Assembly: GCA_001942045.1 (NCBI GenBank)
Contig: MSTD01000014.1
Coordinates: 98,886-130,837, forward strand
DNA from: Mycolicibacterium porcinum
GTDB lineage: Bacteria > Actinomycetota > Actinomycetes > Mycobacteriales > Mycobacteriaceae
Direction: 5' to 3'
DNA length: 31,952 nucleotides
The notes beneath the pieces were generated by a model. That model was not told the origin of the DNA and ran no database searches. It saw only the letters and a list, made by a program, of their open reading frames with translations. Positions within the stretch are counted from its first letter, which is position 1. The number at the start of each line of letters is the position of its first letter. A program made the translations under genes and the position numbers. Below, one piece after another: positions 10,956 through 13,361 of this stretch.

Positions 10956-13361
10956 GAGTCGGCCCGCCCGATCGACACCACTGCCCCGGCGGTCACTCCG
11001 AGCTGGCGATGGATCGCCGATCCCGGGGAATTGGTCGGCAGCCACACCACCCGATCTGGCATCTCGGTCACCGCCAGGGGCAACGTGACGGTGCCGCGGT
11101 CGGTGCTGACGGTCACCGGATCATCTGATGTCACACCGAGTTCGGCGGCGGTGGCCGGGGACACGCGCACCACGGGGCTGACGGCGGTTCCGGCCAGGTA
11201 CGGTTCCCCGTCCTGCAGACGTCCGGCGTCCAGCAGCAGACGCCAACTGGCCAGCACGGCCTGCCCGGGGCCGGGACTCGGGGTCGGTCCGGGAGCGGCC
11301 GAAGGTTCGGCGGCGCGGGGACCGGTCCAGGTGCCCAGTTGGGCCAGCTCGGTGTCGGCGGCTTCGGGTCCGGTCAGGCCGAGATCCACCCCGATCTCGT
11401 CGGCGAGGTAGTGCAGGACGCGCAGATCGGGGATGGCGTTGGTCTGCAATGCCGGTGTGAACGGGCGGATCCGGCCTTCCCAGTTGAGGTATGCGCCACC
11501 CTTTTCCACGGCGGGAGCCACCGGGAACACCACGTCGGCCAGTTCGGTGACCTCGCTCTCCCGCAGCTCCAGGCTCACCACGAAGGGGGCGGCCCGCAGC
11601 CCGGCCAGGGCCGCGGCCGGATCGGGCAGATCGGTGACGGAACGCTCTCGGCGCTCATCGCTCGACGCCGCCCACGATGAGCGCCGAGAGCGTTCCGTCA
11701 CCGGCCGCTGCCAGGATGGCGCTGGTGTCACGGCCCGCGGCGGTCGGCAGGTCGGAGGTATTCCAGGCGGCTGCGGTCTGGGCGCGGGCGTCGGCGTCGT
11801 CGACGGGCCGTCCACCGGGCAGCAGGTTCGGCAGAGCACCGGCCTCCAGCGCGCCGCGCTCGCCGGCCCGGCGTGGAATCCAGCCGATCCGGGCGCCGGT
11901 GGCCGCGGCGAGCCGTACTGCGGCCGACAGGGCGCCCGGCGAGGTGGCCAGGCGTTCTCCGACCAGGATCACCGAGCCGGGGCGTTGCAGCCGTTCGTCG
12001 GACGCCAGCGCGTCCAGTGCGGCGGCTTCTGTTCCGGGGACGGTCGGGATCAGGGTGCCCGCCATCTTCGTCAGTCCACGGCTGGCCAGCGGTGCCACCG
12101 CGAGTACCTGCAGGCCGTTCTTGCGGGCGGCCTTGCGCAGCCGCAGGAAGACGATAGGAGATTCCTCTTCTGGCTCCAGCCCGACGAGCAGTACGGTCGG
12201 CGCCGTTTCCAGCTCGGCGTACCGCAACGTCATGGGTTGCCCGGCGATGCGTGATGCCAGGAATTCGGCCTCCTCCTCCGAATGCGGCCGGGTCCGGAAG
12301 TCGATGTCGTTGGTGCCCAGCACCATTCGGGCGAACTTCGAGTACGCGTAGGCGTCCTGCACGGTGCAGCGTCCGCCCACCAGCACACCGGTGTTCGCCC
12401 CAGCGGCCAGCAGGCCCGCGCCCGCGACCGTCAGCGCCTCTGACCAGGAGGCCGGCCGCAGCGCGCCGTCTTCACGAACCATGGGTGTGGTGATGCGGTC
12501 ACCGGCCGTGGCATAGGTGAAGGCCCATCGGCCCTTGTCGCAGTTCCACTCCTCGTTGACCTCGGGATCATCACCAGCCAAGCGGCGCAACACTTTTCCG
12601 CGTCGATGGTCGGTGCGCTGAGCGCAGCCAGACGCGCAGTGTTCGCACACGCTGGGGCTGGAGACCAGGTCGAACGGCCGGGCCCGGAACCGGTACGCCG
12701 TCCCGGTCAGTGCGCCCACCGGGCAGATCTGCACGGTGTTGCCGGAGAAATACGACTGGAACGGTTCGCCGGGGGCGATGCCGACCTGCTGCAGCGCACC
12801 GCGTTCCAGCAACTCGATGAAAGGGTCACCGGCGATTTGCGCCGAGAACCGGGTGCAGCGGGCGCACAACACACACCGTTCGCGGTCGAGCAGGACCTGC
12901 GTGGAGATGTTGATCGGTTTCGGGTAGGTCCGCTTGACGTCTTCGAACCGGGTCTCGGGGCGGCCGTTGGACATGGCCTGGTTCTGCAGCGGACATTCGC
13001 CGCCCTTGTCGCAGATCGGGCAGTCCAGCGGATGGTTGATCAGCAGCAGCTCCATCACGCCGCGCTGCGCCTTGTCGGCCGCCTCGGAGCTGTACTGGGT
13101 GTGCACCACCATGTCCGGCATGACTGTGGTGGTGCACGAGGCCATGGGTTTGCGCTGGCCCTCGACCTCGACGAGACACTGTCGGCATGCTCCGACCGGA
13201 TCGAGCAGCGGGTGATCGCAGAACCGGGGGATCTGGACACCCATCAGCTCGGCGGCGCGGATCACCAACGTGCCCTTGGGAACACTGATCTCATGCCCAT
13301 CGATGGTGAGTGACACCATCTCCACCGGCGGGGTGTCCTTCGTCGGCTCGGCCAATGTCAT
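10952..13361 (-). pseudogene. nuoG: NADH-quinone oxidoreductase subunit G, frameshifted by a 22-bp inverted insertion
   Basis: Large iron-sulfur subunit of the NADH-oxidising arm. The 5' frame (13361 to 11655) gives 568 residues. All cluster ligands are present: C48, C59, C62, C76 ([2Fe-2S]); H110, C114, C117, C123; C163, C166, C169, C213; and C239, C242, C246, C274 (extra cluster). It stops just after LSALIVGGVE. The rest (VTDLPDPAAALAGLR onward, 228 residues) continues in another frame to 10952. Removing 11639-11660 restores one 795-residue frame, near the roughly 800 residues of mycobacterial NuoG. The removed bases are the reverse complement of 11675-11696. The molybdopterin-oxidoreductase-like C-terminal domain would be lost. 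The ATG at 13361 has AAAGGGGG upstream. This is either a true knock-out or a sequence error. Confidence 0.9.
11632..11703. repeat. Perfect 29-bp inverted repeat inside nuoG (14-bp spacer)
   Basis: Bases 11632-11660 are the exact reverse complement of 11675-11703. In the nuoG reading direction the first-read arm encodes AGDGTLSALI and is native. The second-read arm contains 22 extra bases, then a natural CGGTGAC/GTCACCG pair that could have seeded a template switch. It creates the frameshift described for nuoG. Confidence 0.95.

What the first reader, a model, noticed from the sequence alone, without database searches (positions are those of the whole stretch)
11632..11703. nuoG broken by a 22-bp self-templated inverted insertion
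Removing 11639-11660 rejoins two frames into a 795-residue NuoG, and those 22 bases are the exact reverse complement of native nuoG sequence 14-36 bases away. A natural 7-bp pair CGGTGAC/GTCACCG has become a 29-bp perfect palindrome, the signature of template switching at a quasi-palindrome. If real, this strain has lost the NuoG C-terminal domain and probably complex I, relying on NDH-2. NuoG is also a reported host-apoptosis factor in M. tuberculosis. If not real, it is a sequencing fold-back.
Basis: partly seen in the sequence, partly recalled or inferred. Interest (0 to 1): 0.75.

Follow-up and report, generated by a model that had tools for sequence, protein, structure and literature searches.

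The report
Inverted 22-base insert in mycobacterial nuoG
A 22-base backwards copy of neighbouring DNA interrupts a respiratory-chain gene in this mycobacterial sequence; it looks like a polymerase slip, and may well have arisen in the sequencing library rather than in the living bacterium.

Summary
11632-11660 and 11675-11703 are 29-nt perfect inverted arms with a 14-nt spacer; the 22 bases 11639-11660 are an exact inverted copy of 11675-11696. Of 98 related loci with both flanks, 85 are exactly 22 nt shorter, 13 differ by other lengths, none has the window's length. The N-terminal product stops after 567 native residues plus one, keeps the recognised iron-sulphur domains and loses the last 228 residues. 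It is a strand switch and return at a short inverted repeat. Whether it happened in the cell is open. Against: the window's own left end is a fold-back; the site is in the top 2.7% of the window by G+C; nuoG breaks in other assemblies cluster at residues 430-570 (14 of 28, interval chosen after the fact); two other drafts have fold-backs inside nuoG; no relaxed selection. For: no native base is lost, and of 27 window reading frames compared, only one other shows a frame change that may be the window's. I put library or assembly artefact at 0.55, real recent mutation at 0.40. Loss of complex I is not shown.

The parts
11639..11660 (+). 22-base stretch absent from relatives; exact inverted copy of 11675-11696
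11632..11660 (+). left arm of the perfect inverted repeat (29 nt)
11675..11703 (+). right arm, native nuoG sequence (its 22-mer is also in G340)
11661..11674 (+). 14-nt spacer (hairpin loop), native
11655..13361 (-). nuoG N-terminal piece, 568 aa (567 native + 1), with the recognised iron-sulphur domains
10952..11638 (-). nuoG C-terminal piece, 228 aa plus stop, with the molybdopterin dinucleotide-binding domain
1..123 (+). second long fold-back: arms 1-47 / 77-123, spacer 29; 1-42 do not match G001 or G340, native from 43

Best explanation
A polymerase copying this G+C-rich stretch left its template at the short inverted repeat CGGTGAC/GTCACCG, copied 22 bases of the opposite strand, and returned, leaving a perfect 29-bp hairpin in nuoG. 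The product and its template are shown. I judge it somewhat more likely that this happened in vitro (library amplification or end repair, with thin coverage letting one chimeric molecule set the consensus) than in the cell, so the strain may well have an intact nuoG. The in-vitro step and the thin coverage are inferred.
For: The window's left end is itself a fold-back: 1-42 copy 82-123 inverted, joined at a 5-nt complementarity, while G001 and G340 match only from 43; it lies inside a frame whose G001 counterpart is an enoyl-CoA hydratase/isomerase (PF00378). The 200 nt round the insert are among the 2.7% most G+C-rich of the window. Among 389 genomes with a NuoG match (of 396 drawn), 28 placed breaks between contigs or at gaps fall at residues 430-570 in 14 cases, against 18% of the length (p about 1e-4; 11 of 24, p 0.0014, without three N-gap scaffolds and G376). 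Caveats: the interval was chosen after seeing the data, midpoints were read by hand, contig lengths were not checked. G376, a 590-contig draft, carries a 91-bp inverted copy of nuoG residues 460-490 in place of about 517-542, with native sequence on both sides; a contig of the draft G384 starts with a 77-bp fold-back inside nuoG. Inverted joints with 2-21 nt complementarity are usual for amplification chimeras (PMC1855051, abstract and passages); library artefacts at inverted repeats are described in PMC10908179 (abstract and passages).
Against: A simple fold-back does not return to the native strand; this one does, with no native base lost, unlike G376. The window is otherwise largely clean: of 27 reading frames compared with G001, G142 and G340, three besides nuoG show a frame change against some relative. 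Two of these concern one relative only (G142 or G340). One may be the window's own: the last 30 or so residues of 30690-31805, an ORF without a Pfam match, differ in frame from G142, the G340 match ends nearby, and G001 does not cover it. No read depth is available. Only one probable terminal fold-back (L177) was found among 60 contig starts of five other drafts; a second hit (L188) is a natural element, so such artefacts are not common everywhere.
Confidence: 0.55

Rival explanations
1. A real, recent template-switch mutation in this strain: during replication the nascent strand switched at the quasi-palindrome, copied 22 bases and returned. NuoG is cut after residue 567 and complex I is altered or lost, tolerated because NDH-2 carries most NADH oxidation in fast-growing mycobacteria.
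For: Exact templated insertion without loss of native bases, anchored on a 7-bp inverted repeat, the hallmark of quasipalindrome mutation in E. coli (PMC7202029, abstract and passages). Window otherwise largely clean. nuo is reported not essential in vitro, NDH-2 to carry about 95% of NADH oxidation in M. smegmatis, and nuo except a nuoN pseudogene to be missing in M. leprae (PMC9274095, passages). nuoG is also interrupted or rearranged inside a contig, without N at the break, in G300 and G098.
Against: No twin: no 568-aa product among the 120 listed of 7999 scored proteins; none of 98 loci has the window's length. omega of the C-terminal piece against relatives (0.11-0.18) equals that between relatives (0.11-0.18), so the break is very recent or not in the cell. 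Fold-backs at the window's own left end and in nuoG of other drafts.
Confidence: 0.4
2. An assembly join: two contig ends meeting at a coverage gap were merged through a short spurious overlap at GTCACCG after a fold-back read.
For: nuoG residues 430-570 are where many assemblies break; G376 could be of this kind, with native bases replaced.
Against: A 7-base overlap is far below what assemblers normally accept (recalled), and exact retention of every native base would be luck.
Confidence: 0.04
3. A selected hairpin or switch (programmed inactivation, terminator).
For: Very stable RNA hairpin, -75.9 kcal/mol.
Against: Not seen in any of the 98 loci; no Rfam family at gathering threshold in the window.
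Confidence: 0.01

Closest known systems
Quasipalindrome-associated template-switch mutation (Ripley 1982; E. coli thyA and lacZ, as told in PMC7202029)
   Same: Nearby inverted repeat, templated change, more perfect palindrome, frameshift
   Different: Pre-existing arms are short (7 nt in the window, imperfect in the three nearest relatives); the change is a 22-nt insertion; in-cell origin unproven
Amplification and library fold-back chimeras (PMC1855051; PMC10908179)
   Same: Inverted joint at short complementarity within tens of bases; a one-way example sits at the window's left end
   Different: The nuoG case returns to the native strand without loss
Short-range template switch, four-point model (PMC7954356, passages)
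   Same: Switch out, inverted copy, switch back; single new inverted repeat
   Different: Described there for great apes from alignments; here one bacterial sequence without reads

Membership tests
Quasipalindrome template-switch mutation | Inserted bases are an exact inverted copy of nearby sequence | tested here: met
Quasipalindrome template-switch mutation | Inverted repeat present before the event | tested here: inconclusive
   7-nt pair in the window, but imperfect in G001, G142 and G340
Quasipalindrome template-switch mutation | Change is derived, absent from relatives | tested here: met
   0 of 98 loci have the window's length
Quasipalindrome template-switch mutation | Arises in replicating cells and is carried by the population | not testable with these tools
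   No reads; the window's assembly is not held
Amplification/library fold-back chimera | Inverted joint at short complementarity, neighbouring segments | tested here: met
   7 nt at nuoG, 5 nt at the window start
Amplification/library fold-back chimera | One-way joint with no return | tested here: not met
   Native sequence resumes on both sides at nuoG; cannot be judged at the window start
NuoG (complex I 75-kDa-type subunit) | Fer2, 4Fe-4S and molybdopterin-like domains | tested here: met
   N and C pieces searched apart (the last 4Fe-4S models score just under their curated cut-offs); 567 residues align to 8e9g_G
Long-standing pseudogene | Relaxed selection after the break | tested here: not met

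The most novel reading that the evidence does not exclude
The G+C-rich middle of nuoG (about residues 430-570) is a real strand-switch hotspot in mycobacterial chromosomes, giving truncated NuoG alleles independently in several species (this window, G376), with the iron-sulphur half kept and the C-terminal lobe lost.
Probability: 0.08. Interest if true: 0.55.

Novelty: new member of a known kind. Interest (0 to 1): 0.22.

Why it matters
If real, it is a clean bacterial example of a templated inverted insertion and a natural test of whether complex I tolerates loss of the NuoG C-terminal lobe. If not, it warns that nuoG 'pseudogenes' in draft mycobacterial genomes need read-level checks: this G+C-rich stretch often breaks, gaps or folds back in assemblies.

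Tried and rejected
Hotspot by protein ends: P0061 (M. septicum, ends at residue 566) and P0121 (218 aa, 99.5% identical to the C-terminus of P0003, which lies on a contig of G001's length; starts at 578) looked like breaks at the same site. Start positions of the 120 listed C-terminal fragments show no peak at 566-578 (broad maximum at 495-555, shaped by the search's length limits), and G001 has no in-frame start codon at 545-577, so P0121's true edge is unknown: inconclusive.

Apparent nuoG breaks in G101, G177, G232 and G135 coincide with N in the sequence (336, 39, 317 and 1 N) and are not counted as mutations. Left out of the 28 placed breaks: G289 (unplaceable), G313 (several overlapping pieces on one contig, 85% complete, not followed), G300, G098, G135 and G075 (pieces in one contig or one frame, or rearranged), and genomes with only paralogue-level matches (such as G042, G110, G319, G366, G396) or the odd G294 (48% identity, five TGA). 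The 28 include incomplete genomes. My first omega run on the C-terminal piece was one codon out of register and was redone. Contig-start fold-backs as a universal feature of drafts: one probable case in 60, so not universal. The paper search for nuoG frameshifts in mycobacteria found 34 papers and listed 15, none visibly on this event; apart from PMC2858756 and PMC9274095 I saw only listing lines.

Full report
What is there. The window comes from a mycobacterium near M. porcinum and M. vulneris: of the NuoG matches the best with source names are from these, at 96-97% identity over the N piece, and the best of all is an unnamed one at 98%. The nearest whole genome held is G001, about 93% identical at DNA level; G142 is at about 92% and G340 at 88-91% over the long matches. 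The window's own assembly is not held. The nuo operon lies on the minus strand. nuoG is split: an N-terminal frame 13361-11655 of 568 aa and a C-terminal frame ending at 10952. Between them lies a 29-nt perfect inverted repeat with a 14-nt spacer.

Direction of the change. Relatives have fewer bases at the site: 85 of 98 loci lack exactly 22, and the other 13 differ by -13 to -34. These 98 come from the 118 loci then held; 20 lacked at least one flank match, and the 98 include repeats of G001, G142 and G340. The right arm is the native one: G340 has its 22-mer exactly and G001 matches it in inverted orientation to the left arm. So the left 22 bases are an inverted copy of the right. The flanking pair CGGTGAC/GTCACCG is perfect in the window but not in G001, G142 or G340, which have GTCGCCG or GTCGGCG as partner. 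Whether the window's A in the right arm was there before, or was made in the same event, cannot be told.

Mechanism. With the 3' end CGGTGAC paired to GTCACCG, copying 22 bases and returning gives exactly this product with no native base lost (inference from the sequence). Seen on the other strand, the same 7 bases serve as the return anchor and the entry has no complementarity, so I favour the first direction (inference).

Effect. The N piece keeps Fer2_4, NADH-G_4Fe-4S_3, Fer4_Nqo3 and, just under the curated cut-offs, a further 4Fe-4S domain up to residue 280; the C piece holds the end of the molybdopterin oxidoreductase domain (also just under cut-off) and PF01568. The first 567 residues align end to end with the solved chain 8e9g_G (M. 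smegmatis, recalled; the table gives only the subunit name). So the electron-carrying half could still be made; whether complex I assembles is unknown. Downstream frames for NuoH, NuoI, NuoL, NuoM and NuoN are open (subunit names assigned by me from domains and order); the frame 8443-9282 had no Pfam match. Polarity caused by the hairpin and early stop is possible but untested.

Age. In the C-terminal piece omega between window and relatives is 0.178, 0.144 and 0.109 (G001, G142, G340), against 0.140, 0.175 and 0.106 between the relatives themselves. There is no sign of decay: the break is very recent or not in the cell.

Cell or tube. Three results weaken the in-cell reading. First, the window begins with a 47-nt perfect inverted repeat (spacer 29); G001 and G340 match only from base 43, so 1-42 are an inverted copy joined at 5 nt, inside a frame whose G001 counterpart is an enoyl-CoA hydratase/isomerase. 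The window is probably a whole contig (inference; its last 55 bases match a distant place in G340). Second, the nuoG site is G+C-rich: 74.5% over 200 nt, top 2.7% of the window; residues 451-600 are 74-79% G+C in window and G001. Among 389 genomes with a match at E 1e-50 (of 396 drawn), 28 placed contig or gap breaks in nuoG fall at 430-570 in 14 cases, and in the five most G+C-rich of sixteen 50-residue bins in 19 (binomial p about 1e-4 each). The interval and the G+C cut were set after seeing the positions, the midpoints were read by hand, contig lengths were not checked and incomplete genomes are included, so the p values are only a guide. Third, G376 has an internal 91-bp inverted copy within this stretch and G384 a 77-bp fold-back at a contig start in nuoG.

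Against an artefact. The product returns to the native strand with nothing lost. Of 27 window reading frames compared by tblastn with G001, G142 and G340, three besides nuoG change frame against some relative: 26151-27602 against G142 only, 19605-20789 against G340 only, and the last 30 or so residues of 30690-31805 against G142, with the match to G340 ending near the same point; the third is not covered in G001 and may be a change in the window. 29188-30486 is likewise not covered in G001, and 1018-2469 was found only in G142.

Baselines. Perfect inverted repeats: longest 22 nt in 791,685 bases of relatives' loci and 23 nt in 400 kb of G001. Loci fetched because nuoG matched poorly added 91 and 77 nt in G376 and G384, so such structures are not unique to the window. 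Of 60 contig starts in five drafts, two began with an inverted repeat of 19-20 nt; one (L188) is native in relatives, the other (L177) matches G001 only from base 15 and is a probable fold-back.

Literature. PMC1855051, PMC7202029, PMC7954356, PMC10908179, PMC9274095 and PMC2858756 were seen as passages, with all or part of their abstracts; the other papers only as listing lines.

Verdict. A correctly observed, well-defined strand-switch product of a known kind; origin undecided, artefact slightly favoured; no new biology needed.

Noticed in passing
window 1-123: 47-nt perfect inverted repeat with 29-nt spacer at the very start; 1-42 do not match G001 or G340, inside an enoyl-CoA hydratase-like frame (PF00378 in G001); probably a contig-end fold-back.
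   Followed up: partly
window 13396-13457: 62-bp palindrome between nuoF and nuoG, absent in G001, G142 and G340. It resembles a dispersed family of mostly 60 bp with fixed ends GCGAGCAGAC...GTCTGCTCGC and varying, still largely self-complementary middles: 4 to 12 exact places per genome in 5 genomes.
   Followed up: partly
L122 532-788 (G376): nuoG with a 91-bp inverted copy of residues 460-490 in place of about 517-542, both flanks native.
   Followed up: partly
L144 1-264 (G384): Contig starting with a 77-bp fold-back (spacer 110) inside nuoG.
   Followed up: no
L229 4047-6086 and L230 (G300): In a single-contig genome nuoG stops matching at residue 665 and runs over a gene with an AMP-binding domain on the other strand; the nuoG end (703-795) and a NADHdh-domain gene lie 4.5 Mb away: rearrangement or misassembly.
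   Followed up: partly
nuoG residues 430-570, many assemblies: Recurrent contig breaks and N gaps at the G+C peaks of nuoG.
   Followed up: partly
G110, G366, G396: Near-complete genomes (98-100%) with only a 32-33% match to NuoG within residues 3-452, so probably no nuoG orthologue.
   Followed up: no
window 30690-31805: ORF without a Pfam match whose last 30 or so residues differ in frame from G142, with the G340 match ending nearby.
   Followed up: partly
window 513-3077: About 2.5 kb, with an FAD-binding monooxygenase-type gene at 1018-2469, missing at this place in G001 but mostly present in G142.
   Followed up: no
window 31898-31952: Last 55 bases match G340 at a distant place, 93%; they hold a short hairpin, so the right end may be a dispersed repeat.
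   Followed up: no
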